Below, in pieces: positions 8,372 through 63,204 of a stretch of 64,000 nucleotides of DNA. Each line of letters opens with the position of its first letter. Within the stretch, counting starts at the first letter, position 1. The stretch comes from SAR116 cluster bacterium AG-390-L20 (lineage in GTDB: Bacteria; Pseudomonadota; Alphaproteobacteria; Puniceispirillales; Marisalimonadaceae). The position numbers and the translations under genes are program-made. The notes below the pieces were generated by a model. It worked only from the letters and a program-made list of their open reading frames with translations, had not been told where the DNA came from and made no database searches. The stretch is from positions 160,210-224,209 of the forward strand of contig QCHB01000002.1 of NCBI GenBank assembly GCA_003278095.1, in the 5' to 3' direction.

Positions 8372-9130
8372 ATGAAAAAAAAATTAAATAACATTCTTAT
8401 AACAAATGATGACGGTTATAATGCTATTGGTATAAAAATATTGTTAGAAATTGCAGAAAAGCTTGGAAAAAATGTTTATGTAATTTCTCCCGAAAAAAAT
8501 CAATCAGCAAAATCTAAGTCTATAACTATCAGGAATAACATTAATTATAAAAAAATATCAAATTATAATTGGATTGTAGATGGAACACCAACAGATTGTA
8601 TGATTTTTGCTTTAAATCATATTTTTAAATCGGATAAACCTGATCTAATTTTAAGTGGAATAAATGCAGGTAGTAACATTGGAGATGAGGTGTCTTATTC
8701 AGGTACTGTGGGTGCTGCTTGGGAAGGCGCAGTTAGAGGTATCAACTCTATTGCATTAAGTCAATTTGGTGGAGATAATAATATTTATTCCTACAAGAAT
8801 TCTAAAAATAATGCTTTAAATGTTATAAATTATCTACTTGATTTAAATTTAGGTCATCCAAAATTTTATAATGTTAATTTTCCTTTTATATTTTCTGAAA
8901 TTATAAAAAGTAAAGATTATTTATTTACTGAGTTAGCTTCCCAAAAAAAGGCAGATGAAATTATTTTTAGTCAAGACAATAATTCTTTTAGCATAGGAAG
9001 AATGATAAATCACAATGAATGTATTTTAAATTCAGATTTAGAAACTTTAAAAAAAAATAAAATTTCAATAACTCCATTATTATTAAATTTAACTAATAAT
9101 ATAATAATAAATAATTTGAAGATCTCTTAA
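8372..9130 (+). CDS. surE: 5'-nucleotidase SurE
   Basis: Metal-dependent nucleoside-monophosphate phosphatase of the SurE fold, 252 aa. The two adjacent Asp metal ligands appear in ILITNDDGYNAIGI at the N-terminus. The substrate loop VDGTPTDCMIFAL and GTVGAAWEGAV are in their usual places. It is 5 bp after serS and is followed after 1 bp by pcm; serS-surE-pcm is a well-known alphaproteobacterial string. Confidence 0.93.
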   Translation: MKKKLNNILITNDDGYNAIGIKILLEIAEKLGKNVYVISPEKNQSAKSKSITIRNNINYKKISNYNWIVDGTPTDCMIFALNHIFKSDKPDLILSGINAGSNIGDEVSYSGTVGAAWEGAVRGINSIALSQFGGDNNIYSYKNSKNNALNVINYLLDLNLGHPKFYNVNFPFIFSEIIKSKDYLFTELASQKKADEIIFSQDNNSFSIGRMINHNECILNSDLETLKKNKISITPLLLNLTNNIIINNLKIS

Positions 9131-9131
9131 G

Positions 9132-9776
9132 ATGTTATATGAAAGCTCAATTCAAAAGGCTAATCTCATAATGGATTTGAGATCAATGGGTATTTCATCT
9201 AATGATGTTCTTTCAGCCATAGAGAAAATTCCACGCGAAATTTTTTTACCAACTACATTTCAATCATATGCTTATGAAAATAATCCTTTACCCATTGGTT
9301 TTGAGCAAACAATTAGTCAACCTTATATTGTCGCGCTTATGACTGAGGCTTTATCACTAAAGGGTAACGAAGTAATTTTAGAAATAGGTACTGGTTCTGG
9401 TTATCAAACCTCAATTTTATCCCTTTTATCTAGAAGAGTTTACTCTATAGAAAGAATAAAGGCACTTCTTGTTAATGCCCAAAGTTGTTTTAAAAAGCTT
9501 AAGTTAACGAATATAATCTCTGAATTTGGAGATGGATTTTTAGGTTGGCCAAAATTAGCACCTTTTGATCACATGATTATAACATGTGCAGTTAAAAAAA
9601 TAGATAATAGATTATTAAACCAAATTAGAGTTAATGGTTCATGTGTTGTACCAATAGGCAAAAGTATTACTCATCAAAGATTAAAGAAAATTATAATAGG
9701 AAATGACAGAAATGAAGATGTTTGGGAAGATTTAGGTAAAGTTAGTTTTGTACCATTAATTACTGAAAAAGATTGA
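9132..9776 (+). CDS. pcm: Protein-L-isoaspartate O-methyltransferase
   Basis: A 214-aa SAM-dependent methyltransferase that starts repair of isoaspartyl residues in aged proteins. Motif I is VILEIGTGSGYQTSILS, preceded by ISQPYIVALMTEAL and followed by VYSIERI. The C-terminal IGKSITHQRLK segment matches the family. It sits directly behind surE, whose stop is 1 bp upstream, and is probably translated from the same mRNA. Confidence 0.92.
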   Translation: MLYESSIQKANLIMDLRSMGISSNDVLSAIEKIPREIFLPTTFQSYAYENNPLPIGFEQTISQPYIVALMTEALSLKGNEVILEIGTGSGYQTSILSLLSRRVYSIERIKALLVNAQSCFKKLKLTNIISEFGDGFLGWPKLAPFDHMIITCAVKKIDNRLLNQIRVNGSCVVPIGKSITHQRLKKIIIGNDRNEDVWEDLGKVSFVPLITEKD

Positions 9777-53834: not shown

Positions 53835-54011
53835 TTAGTTGGCAATTATTAACATTCTTTTTTTAAGCTGTTTTTGAAGCGCTTTTACATCAAATGGTTT
53901 CATTTTTTTCCATTTTCGGCATTCATCTCTTGTTCTTCCGCACCCTATGCACCAACCATTTTGACCAGTAAATTTACACACATCAATGCAAGGACTTTTC
54001 TGACTTTTCAT
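53835..54011 (-). CDS. DUF1289-family small cysteine-rich protein
   Basis: A short gene of 58 codons. Its product begins MKSQKSPCIDVCKF and contains GWCIGCGRTRDECRKW, the four-Cys pattern (C-x3-C ... C-x2-C) of the DUF1289 (YdhL-like) family, which may bind a metal or iron-sulfur centre. It lies 28 bp after the iota carbonic anhydrase-like gene on the same strand, so it may share that transcript. The opposite strand carries an overlapping open frame that I regard as spurious. Confidence 0.85.
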   Translation of the reverse strand: MKSQKSPCIDVCKFTGQNGWCIGCGRTRDECRKWKKMKPFDVKALQKQLKKRMLIIAN

Positions 54012-54039: not shown

Positions 54040-54510
54040 TTAATTTCCTTGATAAGGCAATGAAGAATGATGAAGATTTATAATTAATTCTCCGTTATCA
54101 TTCTTAGTGTAACCAAAAGTATACTCAACTCTAACCTCTTCACTTACACTGCTAGTTTGAAAATAATAATTGCCCATTACTAGAGCAGTATGATCTTCCA
54201 AAATAAAATACCTATCGCCAAAACGAATTTTTTTCCATGGTTTTAGAGCAAATCCTTTATCTTCTCTAATTGAACCACCGACGAAATAGGATAAAGCATC
54301 ATCAAATTTTATTCTGAACTGGTTTTTTGAGGCTAAAGTCGGTTTGAAAAGTACGTTACTAAAACCATATGCGTAAAAATTAGAAACAAAATCGTATGCG
54401 GCTTGCTTGTAGTCACCGTTATTTGTATAAAGATCCCCAATTTGAATAACATGATCTGCCCATAATCTTTGAGCATTAATCACATCTTCTTTTGAAATAC
54501 TATTTTTCAA
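54040..54510 (-). CDS. Iota-class carbonic anhydrase-like protein (SnoaL fold)
   Basis: A 156-aa single-domain NTF2/SnoaL-like protein without signal peptide. It ends in LIINLHHSSLPYQ (HHSS at 147-150), after VLFKPTLA, ALSYFVGG and VEYTFGY. As I recall it, this order is that of the COG4337/LCIP63 iota carbonic anhydrases, which hydrate CO2 and in some members need no metal. Older annotations call relatives phosphoribosyl-AMP cyclohydrolase, with no motif support here. The start is TTG. It lies 93 bp behind the FecCD-like permease on the same strand with no strong terminator between, so it may be the tail of the Zur-controlled operon. Confidence 0.72.
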   Translation of the reverse strand: MKNSISKEDVINAQRLWADHVIQIGDLYTNNGDYKQAAYDFVSNFYAYGFSNVLFKPTLASKNQFRIKFDDALSYFVGGSIREDKGFALKPWKKIRFGDRYFILEDHTALVMGNYYFQTSSVSEEVRVEYTFGYTKNDNGELIINLHHSSLPYQGN

Positions 54511-54603
54511 TTTTCTAATTATCTTTCAATTGTCATTACAAGATATATTTATAAAATCATGCTTAATAGATATAATATGAATATTATTAATCAACAAAAA
54601 TAT

Positions 54604-55656
54604 CTATAATTTTCTTCTAAGTAACCAAACAAAAAAAACTCCACCAACTAAACCTGTAACTATTCCTATAGGCATATCTTCAGGAGCCATTATTGTGCGA
54701 GCAGCTATATCAGCCCAAAGTAACAGTATTGCACCAAATAAAGCAGAAACTGGTAATACACGTAAATAATTCCCTCCAACTATCATACGAACAACATGAG
54801 GAACCATTAATCCTATAAATCCTATCATACCTGAGAATGCAACCATTACCCCTGTAACAAGGGCGCATATAGTAAACACAATTAAACGGAAATTTTGAAC
54901 TCGAATACCAAGAGTAGTAGCTGTTTCATCACCTACAGTCATTGCATTTAAAATATCTGTTTTAAAAAAAAGCCAGATACCGCAACAAATTAGTGTTGCC
55001 AAAGGATAAATAAGGTGATCCCATTGGGCAAAGCCTAAACCTCCTAACATCCAAAAGACGACTGTGTGAGTAGCCCGGTGATCACCCAAAAATATTAAAA
55101 TATTGGCTCCAGCCATAATTATGAATGATACCGCAACCCCAACTAATACCAAGCGGTCAGCACTTGTTGCAGCTGTAAAACGAGACACTCCCAATACAAT
55201 AGAGGTTGCCACTAAAGCCCCCAAAAAAGCCATCAAAGGGACAGTCAACAGACCAATAAATAACCCTGTATGTAAAAGTGCAAGTATAGCTCCAAATGCA
55301 CCACCCGAGGAAATGCCTAATAAATGAGGGTCAGCTAATGGATTTCTTGTAACAGCTTGAAGACTAGCCCCAACAATTGCCAGTCCAGATCCTACTATAA
55401 TTGCTAAAAGAGAACGTGGAAATCGAACATTCCAAACAATTGCTTCACGACCTTTACTCCAAATAGTTTCAAATGTTTCGGGATATAACTTATTTATTAT
55501 AACTCCCCATACTGTACTTGTTGAGATTTGGACAGCACCAACTGAAATTGCTAGAGATAATGATATAATTAGTACGAATATACTCAATAAAATCAAAAGT
55601 CCTAACCCTTTGTTTATTTTAAAGGGTGATAAAGAACCTTTGATTTTATTTTTCAA
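54604..55656 (-). CDS. FecCD-family ABC permease (metal or metal-chelate importer)
   Basis: A 350-aa inner-membrane protein with about ten helices. Family landmarks are RFPRSLLAIIVGSGLAIVGASLQAVTRNPLADPHLLGISSGG, then FIGLMVPHVVRMIVGG and the C-terminal DMPIGIVTGLVGGVFFVWLL. It is the BtuC/FhuB/FecCD type for siderophores, heme, cobalamin or other metal complexes, not the ZnuB type. It follows the binding-protein gene by 1 bp. The upstream Zur-like operator points to zinc or a zinc chelate as cargo. Confidence 0.93.
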   Translation of the reverse strand: MKNKIKGSLSPFKINKGLGLLILLSIFVLIISLSLAISVGAVQISTSTVWGVIINKLYPETFETIWSKGREAIVWNVRFPRSLLAIIVGSGLAIVGASLQAVTRNPLADPHLLGISSGGAFGAILALLHTGLFIGLLTVPLMAFLGALVATSIVLGVSRFTAATSADRLVLVGVAVSFIIMAGANILIFLGDHRATHTVVFWMLGGLGFAQWDHLIYPLATLICCGIWLFFKTDILNAMTVGDETATTLGIRVQNFRLIVFTICALVTGVMVAFSGMIGFIGLMVPHVVRMIVGGNYLRVLPVSALFGAILLLWADIAARTIMAPEDMPIGIVTGLVGGVFFVWLLRRKL

Positions 55657-55657
55657 G

Positions 55658-56611
55658 TTATTTTTTCCAAAATGACTTAACTAGTTTTTTGACTGCTTTG
55701 ATGTTACGAGGTCCTGGTGTAGCTTCTACATATTCCAGTGTCACAAAACGATCATTTTTAACTGCATCTATTTCTGCAAAAGCGGGATTTGTCATCATGA
55801 ATTGTCTTTTTTGTTCAGCTGTTACGTTTCCATAATTTACTATGACGATAACTTCAGGGTTTCTATCAATTACTTCCTCCCAAGTAACAGTGCCCCAACT
55901 TTTTTTAAAATTGTCCATAACGTTTTTACCACCAGCTGCTTCTATAAGCGCAGTTGGCATCGCATACAAACCAGCTGTAAATGGTGTATCTTCTCCACTA
56001 TCATATACAAAAACTTTTAGAGGATCTTTACTTTGAATATCCTTTGTTAAACTTGCAAGTTCATTACGATAACTTTTAACAATCGAATTAGCTTTATCTT
56101 CAATCTTAAAAATTTTACCTAAATTTAAAAGATCGTTATACATATCATCAATACTAGCTTTATTTTTCTTCATAATATGTGTGCAACTTTCAGTTAATTC
56201 ATAAACTTTAATTCCAAAAGGTTTTAACGTTTCAGGTGTAACTGGTCCACCAACCTTCATGCCATAGTTCCAGCCTGCAAAGAAAAAGTCAGCATCTGCA
56301 CCTATAAGTACTTCTTTAGAAGGATATTTTGATGATAATTCTGGTAATTCTTTTACACCCTTTCGCATTTCTTCATCTAATGTCTTCCATCCAGAAATAC
56401 CTGTGTATCCGACCATGCGATCACTAAGACCAAGTACCAGCATCATCTCTGTCAAATTTACATCATTTGAGATAGTCTTTTTAGGCACTGAATCAAAAGT
56501 TACTGTGCGATTACAACTTTGAATTGAAGTCTTACTGATAGCTATCGAAGTAAAGCCAGTAATTAGGACCATATTTAAAATTAAAAATTTAATTATTGAA
56601 AGTATTTTCAT
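55658..56611 (-). CDS. Periplasmic metal-chelate binding protein (BtuF/FecB-like)
   Basis: A 317-aa class III binding protein with two lobes joined by a long helix. It has a signal peptide ending near SIAISK, and NDVNLTEMMLVLGLSDRMVGYTG is the usual N-lobe start. The PEVIVIVNYG and PGPRNIKAVKKL segments mark the C-lobe. No His-rich loop as in ZnuA is present. It supplies the FecCD-type permease. Zinc-complex specificity is inferred only from the operator. Confidence 0.9.
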   Translation of the reverse strand: MKILSIIKFLILNMVLITGFTSIAISKTSIQSCNRTVTFDSVPKKTISNDVNLTEMMLVLGLSDRMVGYTGISGWKTLDEEMRKGVKELPELSSKYPSKEVLIGADADFFFAGWNYGMKVGGPVTPETLKPFGIKVYELTESCTHIMKKNKASIDDMYNDLLNLGKIFKIEDKANSIVKSYRNELASLTKDIQSKDPLKVFVYDSGEDTPFTAGLYAMPTALIEAAGGKNVMDNFKKSWGTVTWEEVIDRNPEVIVIVNYGNVTAEQKRQFMMTNPAFAEIDAVKNDRFVTLEYVEATPGPRNIKAVKKLVKSFWKK

Positions 56612-56624
56612 TGATGTTCCTCCA

Positions 56625-57410
56625 TTATGCTAAATGAAAAGTTATGTGTTTTGAATTGCTTGGAACTAAAAACTCTTGTTCTGTTATAACTTCAAATGCT
56701 TCAGATATTTTTGATTTACAGAAAACATTGTCTGGGTGTCCAAATGCAAGGGAATGTCCTTCTTTCAACAGAAGGACATCATCACAAATAGAAGCGGCCA
56801 TATTTAAATCGTGAAGAGAAGTCACGACAGTAATTGGTAAGTCTTTAATTAATTCAAGAACTTCTAACTGTTGACGAATATCAAGATGATTTGTTGGCTC
56901 ATCGAGAATTAATAATCTAGTTTCTTGTGCTAGAGCACGAGCAACCATTACGCGCTGTCGTTCTCCGCCAGATAAAGTATTTAATTGTCTATCTGCAAAT
57001 TTAAGGATACATAACCGATTTAATGAATTTTCTATAATTTCTTCGTCATTTACGTCATTTAAACTTCCAAACCATTGTTTATGAGGAGTTCGCCCCAAAG
57101 CAACAATTTCACGAACTGTTAGGGCAAAGTCTGTAATTTGTTCTTGTAAAACTGCGGCAATTATGCAGGCTACTTTCTTAGCGGACATTGACCAAATGTC
57201 TTTTCCATCTATCTTAATTACGCCTGTGCTTGGTTTTTGATACCTATATAATAAGCGAAGAAGCGTAGACTTTCCCGCTCCATTAGGACCAACAATACCT
57301 AAAATTTTTCCAGGATCTAAATTAAAAGAAACAGGATGTAGTATCTTTTGCTTTTTTCTTGGTTCTGTCCAACTGATATCTTTAACATCTATACTCACTG
57401 GTAATTTCAT
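56625..57410 (-). CDS. FecE/BtuD-like ABC ATPase
   Basis: A 261-aa ATPase: Walker A GPNGAGKST, Q-loop AAVLQEQ, signature TLSGGERQRVMVARALA, Walker B LLILDEPTNHLDIRQQ, and VTSLHDLNMA with the switch His. GRTPHKQWFGSLNDVND is the family's characteristic insertion. It follows DUF1636 by 5 bp and precedes the binding-protein gene by 13 bp. Confidence 0.93.
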   Translation of the reverse strand: MKLPVSIDVKDISWTEPRKKQKILHPVSFNLDPGKILGIVGPNGAGKSTLLRLLYRYQKPSTGVIKIDGKDIWSMSAKKVACIIAAVLQEQITDFALTVREIVALGRTPHKQWFGSLNDVNDEEIIENSLNRLCILKFADRQLNTLSGGERQRVMVARALAQETRLLILDEPTNHLDIRQQLEVLELIKDLPITVVTSLHDLNMAASICDDVLLLKEGHSLAFGHPDNVFCKSKISEAFEVITEQEFLVPSNSKHITFHLA

Positions 57411-57415
57411 TGGAA

Positions 57416-57832
57416 TTATCCTTTAAATAAATAACTAACAAGTGAAGAATTAGTGGATATTGGAGGGAGTCTTCCAAGAATATTTGAGCGAAAAAGTTCT
57501 GGTCTATCTCTTCGTCTTAAAAAACCATCTGATGAAGAGTTATAAATTGATATAAGGTCTAATAATGAATTTACATATTCAAATTTAGATGGCTTTATGT
57601 CACCAAATATATATGTAAATGAATTTTCAGCAGTAAGTGATATTATACAAGAGCGTTTACATTGGCTCATACAATTAACTCCTCTTACTTTCAATCCTCC
57701 AATTTTTTTGTGCTTAATACTTTCCATAAAGAGTTCTGAGAACCGTTTTCCTCCTCTTTCTTTACTTGTTTCCTCTAGGCCATCCTTACAAGAAAGACAA
57801 ATGGACAAAATAGGTTTTTTTGCGTCTAACAT
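57416..57832 (-). CDS. DUF1636-family putative metal-binding protein
   Basis: A 138-aa protein with Cys 12 and 15 (CLSCKDG) and Cys 54, 58 and 62 (GVNCMSQCKRSC), a thioredoxin-like ferredoxin pattern. It ends in the family-typical ILGRLPPI...SLVSYLFKG region. DUF1636 (COG5469) proteins are annotated as predicted metal-binding proteins without known activity. It is the first gene of the leftward importer operon, with a Zur-like palindrome 51 bp upstream of its ATG, so a part in intracellular handling of the imported metal is plausible. Confidence 0.75.
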   Translation of the reverse strand: MLDAKKPILSICLSCKDGLEETSKERGGKRFSELFMESIKHKKIGGLKVRGVNCMSQCKRSCIISLTAENSFTYIFGDIKPSKFEYVNSLLDLISIYNSSSDGFLRRRDRPELFRSNILGRLPPISTNSSLVSYLFKG

Positions 57833-57882
57833 TTTATTTCTGTTCCTAAAATTTTTACTAACTAATTACACCATTCAATAAT

Positions 57883-57900
57883 GTAATGTTATAACATAAC
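57883..57900. promoter_or_regulatory. Zur-like operator 1 (importer operon side)
   Basis: GTAATGTTATAACATAAC, an 18-bp palindrome with one mismatched pair around the core ATGTTATAACAT (57886-57897). The core matches the second site at 57945-57964 exactly. It is placed 51 bp upstream of the DUF1636 start, where it would block the leftward promoter when Zur holds zinc. The GTTATAAC form agrees with known proteobacterial Zur sites. Confidence 0.8.
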
Positions 57901-57944
57901 AGTTTTTTGATTACTCTCGTAGTAGGGTGTTGTCAAATAAAAAA

Positions 57945-57964
57945 TGCAATGTTATAACATTGCA
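57945..57964. promoter_or_regulatory. Zur-like operator 2 (zur operon side)
   Basis: TGCAATGTTATAACATTGCA, a perfect 20-bp palindrome, 38 bp upstream of the zur ATG. Its centre lies 63 bp from that of operator 1, about six helical turns, so the two could serve separate divergent promoters or bind cooperatively. This implies that zur represses its own operon. Confidence 0.82.
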
Positions 57965-58002: not shown

Positions 58003-58407
58003 ATGATAAAAAGTAAATCTCGCCTAACCCATGCAGATCGAGTACTTCAATATCTTAAAAATAAAGATCAACCACTTTCAGCTTATGATATTCTAGAGGG
58101 TATGAGGTCAGAAGGTGTTGCAGCAGCCACCACAGTTTATAGAGCTTTAGACAAATTACTGTCAATTGGATTAGTACACAAAATAGAATCTCTTAATGCA
58201 TGGACAGTATGTTGTGGATCTCACAATAATAAAACACCTGTTTTTGAAATATGTAATGATTGTGGATACGTTAAAGAACATCTTGACCAAGATTTTACGA
58301 ATAATATTAATAATTTATCCAAAAGGACTGGCTTTATCCCAGACAATCCAGTTCTAGAAATTCATGGTAGATGCGGTGCATGTGCTAATAATTATTTAAG
58401 TGCCTGA
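58003..58407 (+). CDS. zur: Zinc uptake regulator, Fur family
   Basis: A 134-aa Fur-superfamily repressor. The N-terminal winged helix (about 1-75) has [30 protein letters not shown]. The C-terminal domain has two Cys pairs for structural zinc, C84/C87 (CNDCG) and C124/C127 (CGAC), plus His residues in between. The short CNDCG...CGAC form and the neighbours (COG0523 GTPases, metal importer) fit Zur rather than Fur, Mur or Irr. Two operator-like palindromes lie just upstream. The start has AAAGGA 6 bp before the ATG. Confidence 0.9.
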
Positions 58408-58418
58408 AAGGAAATATA

Positions 58419-59390
58419 ATGAATGATATGTCACAAGTACCAGTAACAGTACTAACTGGATTTCTTGGAGCTGGTAAAACTACACTCTTAAATCGTATAC
58501 TTACAGAACAGCATGGGCAAAAATATGCTGTAATAGTTAATGAATTTGGAGAACAAGGTATTGATAATGATCTCGTTGTCGATGCTGATGAAGAAGTTTT
58601 TGAAATGAATAATGGCTGTATTTGTTGTACAGTTAGAGGTGACCTAATTCGTATACTTGGCGGTCTAATGAAGCGTGCGGACAAACTTGACGCAATTATA
58701 GTTGAGACTACAGGCCTTGCAGATCCAGCTCCAGTTGCACAGACGTTTTTTGTAGACCAAGATGTTTCTGACAGAACTAAATTAGACGCTATAGTTACAG
58801 TTGCAGATGCCGTTCACTTAAGTTCTCAACTTGGTGAGCATCATGAAGCTGAAGAACAAATAGCATTTGCAGATGTTGTATTACTTAATAAAATTGACCT
58901 TGTTGACGATAAAGCCGTTCAAAATGTTCAAACTCGTATCCGTAAAATAAACCCTTACGCAAAAATTATTAAAACTAATCACTGCTCTGCGCCACTAACG
59001 GAAGTTCTAGGTTTAAACGCCTTTAGTTTGGATCGAGTTTTAGAAGTTGAACCAGATTTTCTAGAATCTGACCATGACCATGAACATGATGATGATGTTA
59101 CAAGTTTATCATTTGTGTCTGATACGCCTTTAGATATGGATAAATTTCAAGCTTGGTTTGGTAATTTGTTACAAGAAAAAGGCCAAGATATTTTGAGATC
59201 TAAAGGCATTCTGAATTTTGAAGGTAGAGATGATAGGTATGTTTTCCAAGGAGTTCATATGCTTATGGACGCATCTCCAATGGGTCCATGGCCAGCAGGT
59301 AAAGATCGCAGTTCAAGAGTTGTGTTTATTGGAAGAAATCTTGAAAGTATGAACCTTCAAGAAGGTTTTGAACGCTGTAAAGTAGCCTAA
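58419..59390 (+). CDS. COG0523 zinc-metallochaperone GTPase, copy 1
   Basis: A 323-aa G3E GTPase of the CobW/ZNG1/ZigA group. The P-loop GFLGAGKTT is at 14-22, the metal motif CICC spans C67-C69-C70 ([13 protein letters not shown]), the G-domain [12 protein letters not shown] follows, and NKIDLV is the base-recognition motif. A His/Asp cluster (DHDHEHDDD, about 213-221) and a CobW C-terminal domain complete it. Such proteins deliver zinc to client enzymes when it is scarce. It is 11 bp behind zur and under the same operator. It is not the cobalt-chelatase partner: no cobalamin genes are near. Confidence 0.92.
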
Positions 59391-59426
59391 ATGTTCAAGT
59401 GATATACTACTAAATAGCACATATTG

Positions 59427-60482
59427 ATGTCAGACAGAGAAAAATTTTTAAGAGAAAAAATATCTTCCCTTGTGCCAAAGGAAACTGAGTTAGAAAATAG
59501 GGGGGAGCATTTTGATTTTCATGCTCCTGTAACTTGTTCAGTGACTACCAGTCATTCGATTGCTGTTGGTTTTGGTGATGGTAAAGTTAGGTTTTTTTTT
59601 GAAGGAGAAAAACCTAGAATTATTGACGCTCATAACGGTGTTGTTTTATCAATAGCTACAAATGGCGAATATATATTTACTGGTGGAGATGATGGAAGAT
59701 TTTTAAAGTTATCTCAAAATGGAGATATTGTTGAGATAGCTAATTTTAATTCTCGTTGGGTAGACTCCGTTGCTGCTTACAAAGATAGTATGGTCTGTTC
59801 ATCTGGTCGTAATGTCTACATATGGTCTGGGGATCAAAAGAAAGCAAAGTCACTTGAGCATTCAAGTACTGTTGGGGGTTTAGCCTTCGATCATACTGGA
59901 AAACGTTTAGCTGTTTCTTCATATGGAGGTGTAACAGTATGGGAACGAGGAGAGCGTCGGTGGACGTCAAAAAGATTAGTATGGAAAGGTTCTCATAGTA
60001 AAGTAGGTTTTAGTCCAGATGGAAAATATATTGTAACTTCAATGCAAGAAAGTGAACTTCACGGTTGGCGTCTAAGAGATAAAGTTGACTTAGCCATGAG
60101 AGGTTATCCTGCAAAGATTAAGAGCTTTGCATGGGTTGGAGATACTCCGCATTTAGCAACTTCTGGAGACCATCAAGCTATATGTTGGCCATTTGATGGA
60201 AAAGATGGACCACTTGGTCGTGAACCAGTTTGTGTTGCAGATTGTGGCAAACAAATTTCAACTTTTATAGAGCCCTTGACTGGAGAAAAAGCTATTTTTG
60301 TAGGTTTTAATGATGGTAGTGTCTTGTTGTCTGAGCTCGATGAAAATAAAAATCCATTTGTAATAAGAAATCCAAAAGGTTCTGAAATTTCTGCAATAGC
60401 AATTTCTCCTAATCGTTCACATATCTTAATAGGTGACTCAGACGGAAATATTTTATGGTCTACGCTATGGAAAAATAATTAG
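59427..60482 (+). CDS. WD40-repeat protein of the zinc operon
   Basis: A 351-aa beta-propeller with about seven WD40-like blades (for example YIFTGGDDGRFLKLS, KRLAVSSYGGVTVWERG, KYIVTSMQESELHGW, HILIGDSDGNILW). It has no signal peptide, so it is cytoplasmic. A charged N-terminal helix (REKFLREKISSLVPKETELE) precedes the propeller. It is 36 bp behind the COG0523 gene and directly before the 85-aa gene. The role is unknown; a scaffold for metal transfer is a guess from context. Confidence 0.8.
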   Translation: MSDREKFLREKISSLVPKETELENRGEHFDFHAPVTCSVTTSHSIAVGFGDGKVRFFFEGEKPRIIDAHNGVVLSIATNGEYIFTGGDDGRFLKLSQNGDIVEIANFNSRWVDSVAAYKDSMVCSSGRNVYIWSGDQKKAKSLEHSSTVGGLAFDHTGKRLAVSSYGGVTVWERGERRWTSKRLVWKGSHSKVGFSPDGKYIVTSMQESELHGWRLRDKVDLAMRGYPAKIKSFAWVGDTPHLATSGDHQAICWPFDGKDGPLGREPVCVADCGKQISTFIEPLTGEKAIFVGFNDGSVLLSELDENKNPFVIRNPKGSEISAIAISPNRSHILIGDSDGNILWSTLWKNN

Positions 60483-60754: not shown

Positions 60755-61408
60755 ATGAGTTATCTACATATTTATAAAATGGACGCAATAAAAGACTTCC
60801 CAAACAAGTCAGATCAATTAGCTATTATGAACAGATCCATGCCTGAAAATGCTAACTTATTCTTTACAGAACTCCTAAAAATATCTTTCAATATTACTGG
60901 TAAAATTAATAAAAAAACAGCTACAATTAATATTAGAGATCTACTAAGCGATAAACTTCCTAAAAAAATTCAAAACAATGTCTTCTACCAAAACTGGATT
61001 GAAGACATGGCTAACTTATGTAAATTATTTTGTCTTATGGAAAAAAGTAGTTACATCAGTTATAGCATTAGTTCACATAGAGGATGCCGACGTTATCATA
61101 TAGATAATGTTCCAATAAGATTGCTAGTGACGTATGCAGGACAGGGAACAGAATGGTTACCAGATAATTTTGCTGATAAAATAGCTTACAAAAATGGTGA
61201 ACCCAATGAGAAAATAATAAAAGACATATCAGCAAGGCAGTTTATAGGTGAATGGGATATTGCGGTATTTAAAGGTGGCCCTGAAGGTTTGCTTCATCGT
61301 ACACCGGATTCAGCTTTGAATAAAAATTCAATATTAATGCGACTTGATCACCCTGAATTTTGGAAAAATATTCAAAGAAACTTTAAACAAAACACTAGTT
61401 ATCTTTAA
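60755..61408 (+). CDS. DUF1826-family protein
   Basis: A 217-aa protein. The segment RRYHIDNVPIRLLVTYAGQGTEWLPD and a later LLHRTPDS give an HxD...H triad such as non-heme iron/2-oxoglutarate oxygenases use. AGQGTEWL and RLDHPEFW are typical of DUF1826. The family often lies near COG0523 GTPases, from memory of published comparative analyses. It is 14 bp behind the 85-aa gene and is last in the zur operon. The enzymatic activity is unproven. Confidence 0.78.
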   Translation: MSYLHIYKMDAIKDFPNKSDQLAIMNRSMPENANLFFTELLKISFNITGKINKKTATINIRDLLSDKLPKKIQNNVFYQNWIEDMANLCKLFCLMEKSSYISYSISSHRGCRRYHIDNVPIRLLVTYAGQGTEWLPDNFADKIAYKNGEPNEKIIKDISARQFIGEWDIAVFKGGPEGLLHRTPDSALNKNSILMRLDHPEFWKNIQRNFKQNTSYL

Positions 61409-61468: not shown

Positions 61469-62515
61469 TTAACCAATAATTTTAAAAAACTCTTCAATGA
61501 CAGATTTTTTAATATCACGAGTAATGAATACCATTTGGGTACTTCTATCTTCGTCAGGCCATTCTTTAAGCCATTCTACAGGATGAAAAATATGTTGAAC
61601 ACCATGAATAATTGCAGGCCCGTCTTTACCTTTTATATTTAGTATGCCTTTTAATCTTAACAATTTAGAACCCATTTGACTTGACAGTAATTCAATAAAA
61701 AAATTCAAAGTTGTCATACTTATCTGCTGATTAGTGACTAGTGAAAAACTTTCAATGTTATCACCATGACGATTTATATCATGATGCTCGTGTTCGTGAT
61801 TATGATTATGATGGGTATTTTTGTTGGTCGTTTCATTGTATTTTTCAATTGCTAACCACTTTCTATAATCCCATGAATTATTTAGTGGATCGTAATCATT
61901 TAATCCTATTAGGTCGGTTAAGGGGAGATTTTTTTTATTGCTCTCAATTATATTTGCTTTTGGATTAATTTTCTTAATTCTGTTTTTAATTGAATTAGTA
62001 TTAGAGCTTTCTGAAAGATCAGTTTTGCTTAAAATAATCTTATCAGCTAAGGCTGTTTGTTTGATTGCTTCTTTGTGATTATTATATGTATTTTCAGCGT
62101 TTACAGCATCAACTAATGTAATGATACCGTCAATTTCATAAATTCTATGTAAATCTAGAGATTTCATAAGAGTATGTATGATAGGAACAGGGTCTGCTAA
62201 ACCGGTAGTTTCAATAACGACTCTGTCAAAATAAGGAATGGTCTTTCTTTCTAATTTCTTTATTAAATCAAGAAGAGTTGATTTTAGATCTTCCTGGATA
62301 GTGCAGCATATACAGCCATTTTGAAGTTCTACTATGTTTTCGTCAGTAGTCTCTACTAAATTATGATCTATGCCAACTTCTCCAAATTCATTAATAATTA
62401 CAGCGGTATTTGTCATAACCTTGTGTTTTAAAAGAGCAGACAAAAGAGTTGTTTTACCGCTACCTAAAAATCCAGTTATTACTGATACGGGAATATTAGT
62501 AGGAAATTGAGACAT
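61469..62515 (-). CDS. COG0523 zinc-metallochaperone GTPase, copy 2 (His-rich)
   Basis: A 348-aa G3E GTPase: P-loop GFLGSGKTTLL (15-25), metal motif [24 protein letters not shown], and base motif SKTDLS. A His-rich loop (about 236-255, THHNHNHEHEHHDINRHGD) could bind several zinc ions. I start at ATG 62515 (MSQFPTN), not the GTG 15 bp upstream. The Zur-like palindrome is 42 bp upstream, shared with divergent folE. Compare B. subtilis ZagA, a COG0523 protein that supports FolE under zinc limitation. Confidence 0.92.
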   Translation of the reverse strand: MSQFPTNIPVSVITGFLGSGKTTLLSALLKHKVMTNTAVIINEFGEVGIDHNLVETTDENIVELQNGCICCTIQEDLKSTLLDLIKKLERKTIPYFDRVVIETTGLADPVPIIHTLMKSLDLHRIYEIDGIITLVDAVNAENTYNNHKEAIKQTALADKIILSKTDLSESSNTNSIKNRIKKINPKANIIESNKKNLPLTDLIGLNDYDPLNNSWDYRKWLAIEKYNETTNKNTHHNHNHEHEHHDINRHGDNIESFSLVTNQQISMTTLNFFIELLSSQMGSKLLRLKGILNIKGKDGPAIIHGVQHIFHPVEWLKEWPDEDRSTQMVFITRDIKKSVIEEFFKIIG

Positions 62516-62556
62516 TATTAAAGTTAACACATTGTAATTCTGAATATAAATAGTAT

Positions 62557-62574
62557 GTTATGTTATAACGTAAC
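62557..62574. promoter_or_regulatory. Zur-like operator 3 (cobW2/folE divergent promoter)
   Basis: GTTATGTTATAACGTAAC, an 18-bp palindrome with one mismatched pair, sharing the ATGTTATAAC core with operators 1 and 2. It lies 42 bp from the COG0523 start and 25 bp from the folE start, so one bound Zur dimer could control both directions. Confidence 0.8.
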
Positions 62575-62598
62575 GTAATTGTCTAGAAAAGAGTAACA

Positions 62599-63204
62599 AT
62601 GACTAAAAATATAAATAATGAAAACATTATCAAATTTAATCCTGATCCGTCTAGAGAAGAGGCTATGCAAGCCGTAAAAACTCTTATTGCATGGGCTGGA
62701 GATAATCCTAATCGTGAAGGATTGATAGAAACTCCAAAACGTGTTGTAGACGCTTATAAAGAGTTTTTTGATGGTTACAAAATGAACCCAGACGAGATCC
62801 TATCTAAAACATTTGAAGAGGTAGAGGGTTATGATGAGATGGTTATTATAAAAAATATTAGACTAGAATCTCATTGTGAACATCATATTGTTCCAATACT
62901 AGGCATTGCTCACGTTGCATATATGCCTAATAAAAAAGTAGTTGGAATTAGCAAGCTAGCTAGACTGGTTGATGTATACGCTAAAAGACTTCAAATACAA
63001 GAAACCTTAACTGCTCAGATTGCAGAAACCATTCAAAGAGTTCTAGATCCTTTGGGAGTTGCTGTACTTATTGACGCGTCTCATCAGTGTATGACTACTA
63101 GAGGGGTTCATAAACCTGAGTCGAGTACAGTTACAAAGCGTATGCTAGGTGTGTTTAAAACTGATGAAAATGTAAGATCTGAATTTATGGAATTAATTAG
63201 ATAG
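62599..63204 (+). CDS. folE: GTP cyclohydrolase I, zinc-dependent type
   Basis: A 201-aa enzyme that opens GTP to dihydroneopterin triphosphate for folate synthesis. Zinc ligands C93 and H96 ([10 protein letters not shown]) and C164 (QCMTTRGV) are all present, so this is the zinc-requiring FolE (type IA) and not FolE2. [20 protein letters not shown] is the family signature. Placement under a Zur-like operator is unusual for the zinc-dependent form. The operator may raise FolE and its chaperone together when zinc falls. Confidence 0.95.

What the first reader, a model, noticed from the sequence alone, without database searches (positions are those of the whole stretch)
54040..54510. Iota carbonic anhydrase-like gene at the tail of the zinc-importer operon: possible zinc sparing
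The 156-aa SnoaL-fold protein ends in HHSSLP with VEYTFGY and VLFKPTLA upstream, the pattern I associate with iota carbonic anhydrases, some of which are reported to work without metal. It is on the same strand and 93 bp behind the FecCD-like gene. If read-through occurs, zinc shortage would induce a carbonic anhydrase that needs no zinc, in parallel with other Zur-controlled enzyme swaps. I do not know of a described case.
Basis: partly seen in the sequence, partly recalled or inferred. Interest (0 to 1): 0.85.

Follow-up and report, generated by a model that had tools for sequence, protein, structure and literature searches.

The report
Metal-free carbonic anhydrase in zinc regulon
A bacterium of the marine SAR116 group carries the gene for an iota-class carbonic anhydrase, predicted to work without metal, directly behind an importer operon headed by predicted zinc-repressor (Zur) sites, so zinc shortage would likely switch on CO2 hydration that spends no zinc.

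Summary
Observation confirmed. 54040-54510(-) encodes a COG4337-type iota carbonic anhydrase: 7c5x/7c5v are the top matches by sequence (E 5e-99, 2e-25) and by fold (TM 0.88-0.93), and the four catalytic residues established by others are present (T58, Y75, H147, S149). It sits 93 bp behind a FecCD importer operon. Zur-like palindromes lie between that operon and zur, and between COG0523b and folE.

The link recurs. In three sister genomes the importer was most likely deleted (the last 32-34 nt of fecCD remain), leaving iota-CA divergent from zur. In six other SAR116 loci it follows box-COG0523. In another lineage it is fused to HisI at the end of a box-zur-znuC-znuB-COG0523 operon. But 16 of 30 SAR116 loci and 48 of 51 others examined show no link, so this is lineage-specific.

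The interpretation needs correcting. No alpha- or beta-CA was found in this genome, and none of 34 iota-bearing family genomes has a beta-CA. Iota-CA probably replaced the zinc enzyme and was then wired to zinc status; it is no backup for a beta-CA. A gamma-CA-like protein is present. Zur-linked CAs of other classes are known; I found no held paper describing a Zur-linked iota-CA. Regulation and activity are untested.

The parts
54040..54510 (-). COG4337-type iota carbonic anhydrase, 156 aa, TTG start; catalytic T58, Y75, H147, S149
54511..54603 (-). 93-bp gap between fecCD-like gene and iota-CA; no terminator-like site on this strand; a weak own promoter is not excluded
54604..55656 (-). FecCD-family ABC permease
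   Evidence: PF01032, E 2.9e-91
55658..56611 (-). periplasmic binding protein (Peripla_BP_2)
56625..57410 (-). ABC ATPase of the FecCD/BtuD type
57416..57832 (-). DUF1636 protein, first gene of the importer operon
57882..57901 (.). predicted Zur box 2 (TGTTATGTTATAACATTACA on the minus strand), importer side
57945..57964 (.). predicted Zur box 1 (TGCAATGTTATAACATTGCA), zur side; kept in importer-less sister genomes
58003..58407 (+). Fur-family regulator, closest to Zur (NF008646, E 8.6e-25, below cut-off)
58419..59390 (+). COG0523 GTPase a (CobW/CobW_C)
59424..60482 (+). WD40-repeat protein
60755..61408 (+). DUF1826 protein, a family named in the Haas 2009 Fig. 4 legend on Zur-regulated COG0523 clusters
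61469..62530 (-). COG0523 GTPase b, the paralogue that lies upstream of iota-CA in other SAR116 loci
62556..62575 (.). predicted Zur box 3 between COG0523b and folE (one mismatch to the 15-mer)
62599..63204 (+). GTP cyclohydrolase I (FolE), divergent from COG0523b

Best explanation
The gene encodes an iota-class carbonic anhydrase, predicted to hydrate CO2 without metal, that has likely taken the place of the zinc carbonic anhydrase in these SAR116 bacteria and would be switched up by zinc shortage as the last gene of a predicted Zur-controlled importer operon. Shown by sequence: class, predicted fold and catalytic residues; gene order; palindromes; recurrence of the linkage; no detectable alpha- or beta-CA. 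Inferred: Zur loaded with zinc binds 57882-57901 and 57945-57964 and represses zur-COG0523a and the DUF1636-ATPase-binding protein-FecCD unit; when zinc falls, transcription runs through the 93-bp gap into iota-CA, so the cell makes bicarbonate without drawing on zinc. If iota-CA is the main CA, some basal expression (leaky box promoter or a weak promoter in the gap) must also exist. Untested: Zur binding, read-through, enzyme activity and metal independence of this protein.
For: Identity; catalytic positions over the window and the 80 loci: T58 80/81, Y75 81/81, H147 80/81, S149 81/81. Boxes: of 11 exact TGTTATNNNATAACA sites in those 80 loci (1.32 Mb; shuffled mean 0.1), 10 lie at promoters of zur, znuA, COG0523b/folE or the DUF1636 operon and 1 before an unmatched 397-aa protein in the zur cluster of L090; many of these loci are relatives, so the sites are not independent. 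Of 8 exact TGTTATAACA sites in the genome only the two between zur and DUF1636 lie outside ORFs. Linkage: window clade 6 of 6 (in L042 only the importer is visible, the contig ends before zur); other SAR116 6 of 24 directly, 2 more nearby; HisI::iota-CA fusion at the end of zur-znuC-znuB-COG0523 in L074 and L077, placed apart from SAR116 in the tree (support 91/90, not starred). Deletion scar: L038, L039 and L041 keep the last 32-34 nt of fecCD but not the importer, leaving iota-CA divergent from zur. Replacement: no PF00484 or PF00194 match in G000; beta-CA in 0 of 34 iota genomes against 7 of 24 others, Fisher p 0.0012. COG0523b in 26 of 34 iota genomes against 5 of 24 others, p 4e-5.
Against: 16 of 30 SAR116 iota-CA loci (window included) have no exact box and no COG0523 in the stretch examined (some contigs are short). 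Outside SAR116, only L074 and L077 of 51 loci are linked and L090 is loosely near; 0 of 17 further class loci. The 93-bp gap is longer than the 1-13 bp gaps inside the importer operon and could hold a promoter. In importer-less sisters only the zur-side box remains, and it may serve zur alone. A sole CA under repression at high zinc would be odd, unless leaky or backed by the gamma-like protein. The genome is 93% complete, and both Fisher tests ignore shared ancestry and incompleteness. Outside the family 2 of 19 iota genomes do carry a beta-CA. In the fusion genomes HisI is single and keeps the cysteines recalled as zinc ligands, so that operon is not purely zinc-sparing.
Confidence: 0.62

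Rival explanations
1. Bystander: iota-CA has its own zinc-independent promoter in the 93-bp gap and its position behind the importer is incidental.
For: Most iota-CA loci examined have no zinc genes nearby; the gap sequence is largely kept in clade members with and without the importer; the gap exceeds the other intergenic distances of the operon.
Against: The linkage recurs in different arrangements, including a fusion inside a zur-znuCB operon; only one weak sigma-70-like match (9 of 12) on this strand, overlapping the start; part of the gap is deleted in L041.
Confidence: 0.2
2. Inducible swap: iota-CA is made only under zinc shortage and stands in for a metal carbonic anhydrase, here the gamma-CA-like YrdA homologue.
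For: Zur-linked gamma-CA (Cam/can) is a known precedent; a YrdA-like protein with three aligned metal-site histidines is in this genome.
Against: No beta- or alpha-CA to replace; YrdA-like proteins occur in most of the family (49 of 58 above 100 bits) whether or not iota-CA is present, and their CA activity is unknown.
Confidence: 0.12
3. COG0523 client: the iota-CA binds a metal in vivo, delivered by the COG0523 GTPase, as might its neighbours FolE and HisI, which are zinc enzymes.
For: In the loci read, iota-CA, FolE and HisI sit beside COG0523b; a Burkholderia iota-CA was reported with zinc (PMC8425729, passages).
Against: The nearest solved relatives are the COG4337 enzymes that stayed active after metal removal and appeared to be inhibited by added zinc (PMC8132391, passages), and the catalytic residues are the same.
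Confidence: 0.06

Closest known systems
COG4337-type iota carbonic anhydrases all2909 (Anabaena, PDB 7c5v) and Bn86287 (Bigelowiella natans, PDB 7c5x)
   Same: Single COG4337 domain as in all2909; same predicted fold; catalytic Thr, Tyr, His, Ser conserved; Tyr at the position of Bn Tyr552.
   Different: Lies behind an importer operon with Zur-like boxes; the words operon and Zur do not occur in the characterisation paper.
Zur-linked carbonic anhydrases: gamma-class Cam/can (Pseudomonas, Cupriavidus) and ytiB (Bacillus subtilis)
   Same: A carbonic anhydrase placed with COG0523 and Zur sites (PMC2770081 section 10; PMC6103462 table passages).
   Different: Those belong to metal-dependent CA classes (gamma named in both papers; ytiB as beta-class is recalled). 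Here the class is the one reported to need no metal, and no alpha- or beta-CA was found beside it in the genome.
Zur-regulated enzyme paralogues HisI2, FolE2, PyrC2, HemB2, DksA
   Same: Enzymes of zinc-demanding steps linked to Zur; a HisI domain is fused to iota-CA in L074/L077.
   Different: Here iota-CA seems to replace rather than duplicate the beta-CA; the fused HisI is the only HisI found in those two genomes.

Membership tests
COG4337-type (metal-free) iota carbonic anhydrase | Homology over the whole COG4337 domain to the characterised enzymes | tested here: met
   7c5x E 5.3e-99 (best stretch residues 4-154); 7c5v E 2.4e-25 over 3-154
COG4337-type (metal-free) iota carbonic anhydrase | Catalytic Thr106, Tyr124, His197, Ser199 (all2909 numbering) | tested here: met
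   T58, Y75, H147, S149 in the window, matched through the alignment (numbering offsets worked out by hand from it); invariant in 21 rows; 80-81 of 81 rows; roles from PMC8132391 passages
COG4337-type (metal-free) iota carbonic anhydrase | Cone-shaped alpha+beta barrel | tested here: met
   as a prediction: AlphaFold2 pLDDT 87.8; best Foldseek PDB matches are 7c5x, 7c5y and 7c5v, TM 0.88-0.93
COG4337-type (metal-free) iota carbonic anhydrase | CO2 hydration that survives metal removal | not testable with these tools
   needs purified protein
COG4337-type (metal-free) iota carbonic anhydrase | NCBIfam equivalog NF047901 at its curated cut-off | tested here: not met
   102 bits against 350; the model has 205 positions, and the PDB matches suggest that this reflects the model's narrow scope
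Zur regulon member | Zur-like palindrome heading the transcription unit | tested here: met
   boxes 57882-57901 and 57945-57964; a consensus match, not shown to bind
Zur regulon member | Cognate Zur in the genome | tested here: inconclusive
   58003-58407: Fur family over its Pfam cut-off; closest NCBIfam model is Zur, E 8.6e-25, but 87 bits against a cut-off of 167
Zur regulon member | Co-transcription with the box-headed unit, no terminator or promoter between | tested here: inconclusive
   no minus-strand terminator-like site in the gap; one 9-of-12 promoter-like match at 54529-54502, overlapping the start
Zur regulon member | Zinc-dependent expression and Zur binding | not testable with these tools
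   no expression data
Zinc-sparing paralogue (inducible swap) | A zinc-dependent isozyme in the same genome that it replaces | tested here: inconclusive
   no beta- or alpha-CA found; a gamma-CA-like YrdA homologue is present

The most novel reading that the evidence does not exclude
In open-ocean alphaproteobacteria the zinc beta-carbonic anhydrase has been retired in favour of a metal-free iota enzyme, and that enzyme has been captured by the Zur zinc regulon at least twice independently (SAR116 next to zur or COG0523; another lineage as a HisI::iota-CA fusion inside a zur-znuC-znuB-COG0523 operon), so that zinc supply sets the cell's capacity to make bicarbonate without spending zinc.
Probability: 0.5. 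Interest if true: 0.85.

Novelty: new variant of a known kind. Interest (0 to 1): 0.72.

Why it matters
Open-ocean zinc is scarce, and carbonic anhydrase is a classic zinc sink (recalled). The discoverers of metal-free iota-CAs suggested that they suit metal-poor water (PMC8132391, passages), and 'Zur' does not occur in that paper. Here a regulatory link is visible in the genome: the gene recurs beside Zur boxes, outlasted the importer next to it in sister genomes, and is fused to HisI within a Zur-box-headed operon elsewhere. This makes the zinc-economy idea directly testable by transcript, Zur binding and protein assays, and predicts that iota-CA transcripts of these clades in marine metatranscriptomes track zinc.

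Tried and rejected
Swap for a beta-CA: rejected for this family; iota and beta never co-occur. G015 was dropped from the iota list before that test because its match is 31 residues at 22 bits; if counted, one genome would hold both. General Zur control of iota-CA: rejected; most loci are unlinked, among them cyanobacteria, Alcanivorax, Erythrobacter and Ponticaulis.

Insertion of the importer beside iota-CA: rejected in favour of deletion, because importer-less genomes retain the last 32-34 nt of fecCD, with a few mismatches. The junction looks the same in all three, but they do not form one clade in the iota tree, so either one event was spread by recombination or the tree is wrong at these short branches.

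The bare 10-mer TGTTATAACA as a genome-wide Zur finder: too short; 6 of 8 places lie within ORFs, and the reversed control pattern gave 5. Literature for this exact box form: three papers hold Zur and GTTATAACAT (listing only), on Yersinia, uropathogenic E. coli and E. coli editing by their titles. The tree's label-change table was uninformative, because unlinked rows were not given as a group.

Novelty searches, all in the held open-access library. Iota-CA terms and Zur were counted together only (20 of 143 papers listed; none of the 20 holds an iota-CA term and a Zur term; 7 papers; one, PMC13261364 on a Pseudomonas gamma-CA, holds 'iota-carbonic' and 'Zur' once each; seen in the listing only). 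So absence from print is not shown.

Full report
WHAT IS THERE. The ORF at 54040-54510(-) is real and complete. By sequence it is an iota carbonic anhydrase of the COG4337 type: 7c5x E 5.3e-99 (three repeats matched), 7c5v E 2.4e-25; 3h51, a putative CaMKII-association-domain protein that others liken to the diatom and Burkholderia iota-CAs, matches only weakly, E 0.0027. The model (pLDDT 87.8) finds 7c5x, 7c5y and 7c5v chains as its five best PDB matches. Hirakawa et al. (PMC8132391; passages seen) found that alanine at Thr106, Tyr124, His197 or Ser199 of all2909 abolished activity (in Bn86287 the His and Ser changes lowered it 4- and 8-fold), that the enzymes work after metal removal, and that added zinc appeared to reduce activity. 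Through the alignment these residues are T58, Y75, H147 and S149 here (offsets worked out by hand). They are invariant in 21 aligned relatives and present in 80, 81, 80 and 81 of 81 sequences from the window and 80 loci.

THE NEIGHBOURHOOD. Minus strand: DUF1636, ABC ATPase, periplasmic binding protein, FecCD permease (gaps 5, 13, 1 bp), then 93 bp, then iota-CA, then a DUF1289 gene at 53835-54011. Plus strand: zur, COG0523a, WD40, an 85-aa ORF, DUF1826. Then COG0523b(-) and divergent folE(+). The permease is of the siderophore/B12 type; no zinc transporter model passes its cut-off, so 'zinc importer' is an inference from the boxes. The genome also encodes a ZnuA, seen as a partial match at a contig edge.

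ZUR BOXES. Palindromes lie at 57882-57901 and 57945-57964 between zur and DUF1636, and at 62556-62575 between COG0523b and folE. In the window TGTTATAACATNACA with up to 2 mismatches matches 9 times (both strands counted; 5 places, two of them inside genes) against 1.81 expected; 0 of 100 shuffles reached 9. In the genome there are 8 exact TGTTATAACA places; 6 lie inside ORFs and the other 2 are these; the reversed control pattern has 5. In 80 related loci (1.32 Mb) there are 11 exact TGTTATNNNATAACA sites against a shuffled mean of 0.1 (block-wise base shuffles): 10 lie at promoters of zur, znuA, COG0523b/folE or the DUF1636 operon, and 1 precedes a 397-aa protein with His-rich stretches in the zur cluster of L090. 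One of the 10 (L045) falls inside an ORF that the caller had extended upstream. Many of the loci are relatives, so the sites are not independent.

THE DELETION. In three close relatives (L038, L039, L041) the importer is missing and iota-CA starts 157-184 bp from the start of the remaining box core, divergent from zur. Their gap aligns on one side with the zur-side box region, and on the other with the last 32-34 nt of fecCD plus the pre-iota sequence, with a further small deletion in L041. So the importer was most likely deleted and the iota-CA kept. In L040 the order is as in the window; L042 shows the importer and iota-CA, but its contig starts within DUF1636.

THE RECURRENCE. Of 30 SAR116 loci (window + 29), the window clade is linked in 6 of 6 (L042 by the importer alone). 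In five loci of a second clade of 19 (L043, L047, L053, L054, L063) the order is folE // box // COG0523b - 4HBT thioesterase - iota-CA on one strand; the box in L047 has one mismatch. L051, in a third clade of 5, has COG0523b then iota-CA with a 540-bp gap and a one-mismatch box. L045 and L052 have box and COG0523b nearby, but opposite-strand genes between. The other 16 show no exact box and no COG0523 in the stretch examined; several contigs are short. In L074 and L077, uncultured alphaproteobacteria placed apart from SAR116 in the tree (91/90, below the starred level), znuA // box // zur-znuC-znuB-COG0523 ends in one 295-aa protein, HisI fused to iota-CA, overlapping COG0523 by 4 bp. A protein search with the HisI half found 7249 proteins; of the 120 listed, 74 carry both PF01502 and PF27546 (my count), 80-99% identical to the query half, so probably one lineage. 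Of the other 49 non-SAR116 loci and 17 further loci from a class survey, none has zinc genes of my reference set nearby by ORF search within 8 kb or by tblastn, except L090 (zur-znuC-znuB 5-7 kb upstream), a lone HisI in L091 and a weak ZnuA-like ORF in L079 seen by the ORF search only. The link is thus lineage-specific, but appears in at least two lineages.

WHICH CARBONIC ANHYDRASES DOES THE CELL HAVE? G000 (93.1% complete): no PF00484 beta-CA, no PF00194 alpha-CA, one iota-CA, one YrdA-like gamma-CA homologue, 43% identical to E. coli YrdA, with three aligned histidines. In 58 family genomes: iota in 34 (35 matched; G015 dropped as a 31-residue match), beta in 7, both in 0; Fisher p 0.0012; among 19 genomes at least 80% complete, 11 iota, 4 beta, 0 both, p 0.018. 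YrdA-like in 53 of 58, of which 49 above 100 bits by my count. Outside the family, 2 of 19 iota genomes also have a beta-CA (G193, G202). COG0523b (E<1e-90, which sets it apart from COG0523a; the call's own tally at 1e-60 is 33) occurs in 31 of 58: 26 of 34 iota genomes and 5 of 24 others, p 4e-5. These tests ignore shared ancestry and incompleteness.

HOW IT LIKELY WORKS. Iota-CA probably took over CO2 hydration from the zinc beta-CA in these SAR116, and in some clades its gene came under Zur. Inferred for the window: zinc-loaded Zur sits on the two boxes; zinc shortage relieves both the zur-COG0523a unit and the importer unit, and transcription continues into iota-CA. The scan shows no terminator-like site in the gap on this strand and one weak promoter-like match (9 of 12) overlapping the start. 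As probably the main CA it also needs basal expression. HisI in the fusion operon is the only HisI found in those two genomes and keeps the cysteines that I recall as zinc ligands; Haas et al. [quoted passage not shown] So those operons may combine zinc-free CA with more, or better loaded, zinc enzyme.

WHAT IS KNOWN. Zur-linked gamma-CA (Cam) and HisI paralogues: PMC2770081, section 10. Table 3 of PMC6103462 lists ytiB (carbonic anhydrase) in B. subtilis, can in Pseudomonas, hisI2 in P. protegens (passages). The metal-poor-ocean argument for COG4337 enzymes is in PMC8132391 (passages), where 'Zur' does not occur. PMC4771312 on SAR11/Roseobacter metal uptake does not contain 'carbonic anhydrase' (find). 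I found no held paper describing a Zur-linked iota-CA; one gamma-CA paper holds both words once each (PMC13261364, listing only), and subscription papers are mostly not held.

VERDICT. The enzyme call is secure at sequence and predicted-fold level. Zur linkage is well supported as genome anatomy and unproven as regulation.

Noticed in passing
L074:9578-10465 and L077:9578-10465: HisI (phosphoribosyl-AMP cyclohydrolase) fused to iota-CA, last gene of zur-znuC-znuB-COG0523; it is the only HisI found in either genome.
   Followed up: partly
window 53835-54011 (-): DUF1289 gene (58 aa, Cys-rich) begins 28 bp behind the iota-CA stop, same strand; may be part of the same transcript.
   Followed up: partly
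window 61469-63204: folE and COG0523b are divergent around a predicted Zur box; the pair recurs in other SAR116 loci and suggests a COG0523-FolE metallochaperone relation.
   Followed up: partly
G007:C1:218660-219463 (L039 genome) and L041 COG0523a (about 8414-9377): Zinc genes look damaged in two importer-less genomes: COG0523b has 3 in-frame stops in G007, and COG0523a is split into two ORFs in L041. Single-cell assembly errors are possible.
   Followed up: no
L043:9396-9836 and equivalents in L046, L047, L050, L053, L054, L059, L060, L062, L063: A 4HBT-family thioesterase gene lies directly upstream of iota-CA in these SAR116 loci, with or without the COG0523b-folE pair.
   Followed up: no
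L090:2791-4030: A Zur-like box precedes a 397-aa protein with His-rich stretches behind zur-znuC-znuB; possibly an outer-membrane zinc protein.
   Followed up: no
G193:C1:374013-382196: An alphaproteobacterial genome outside the family with iota-CA and a beta-CA about 7 kb apart, one of 2 of 19 such genomes with both.
   Followed up: no
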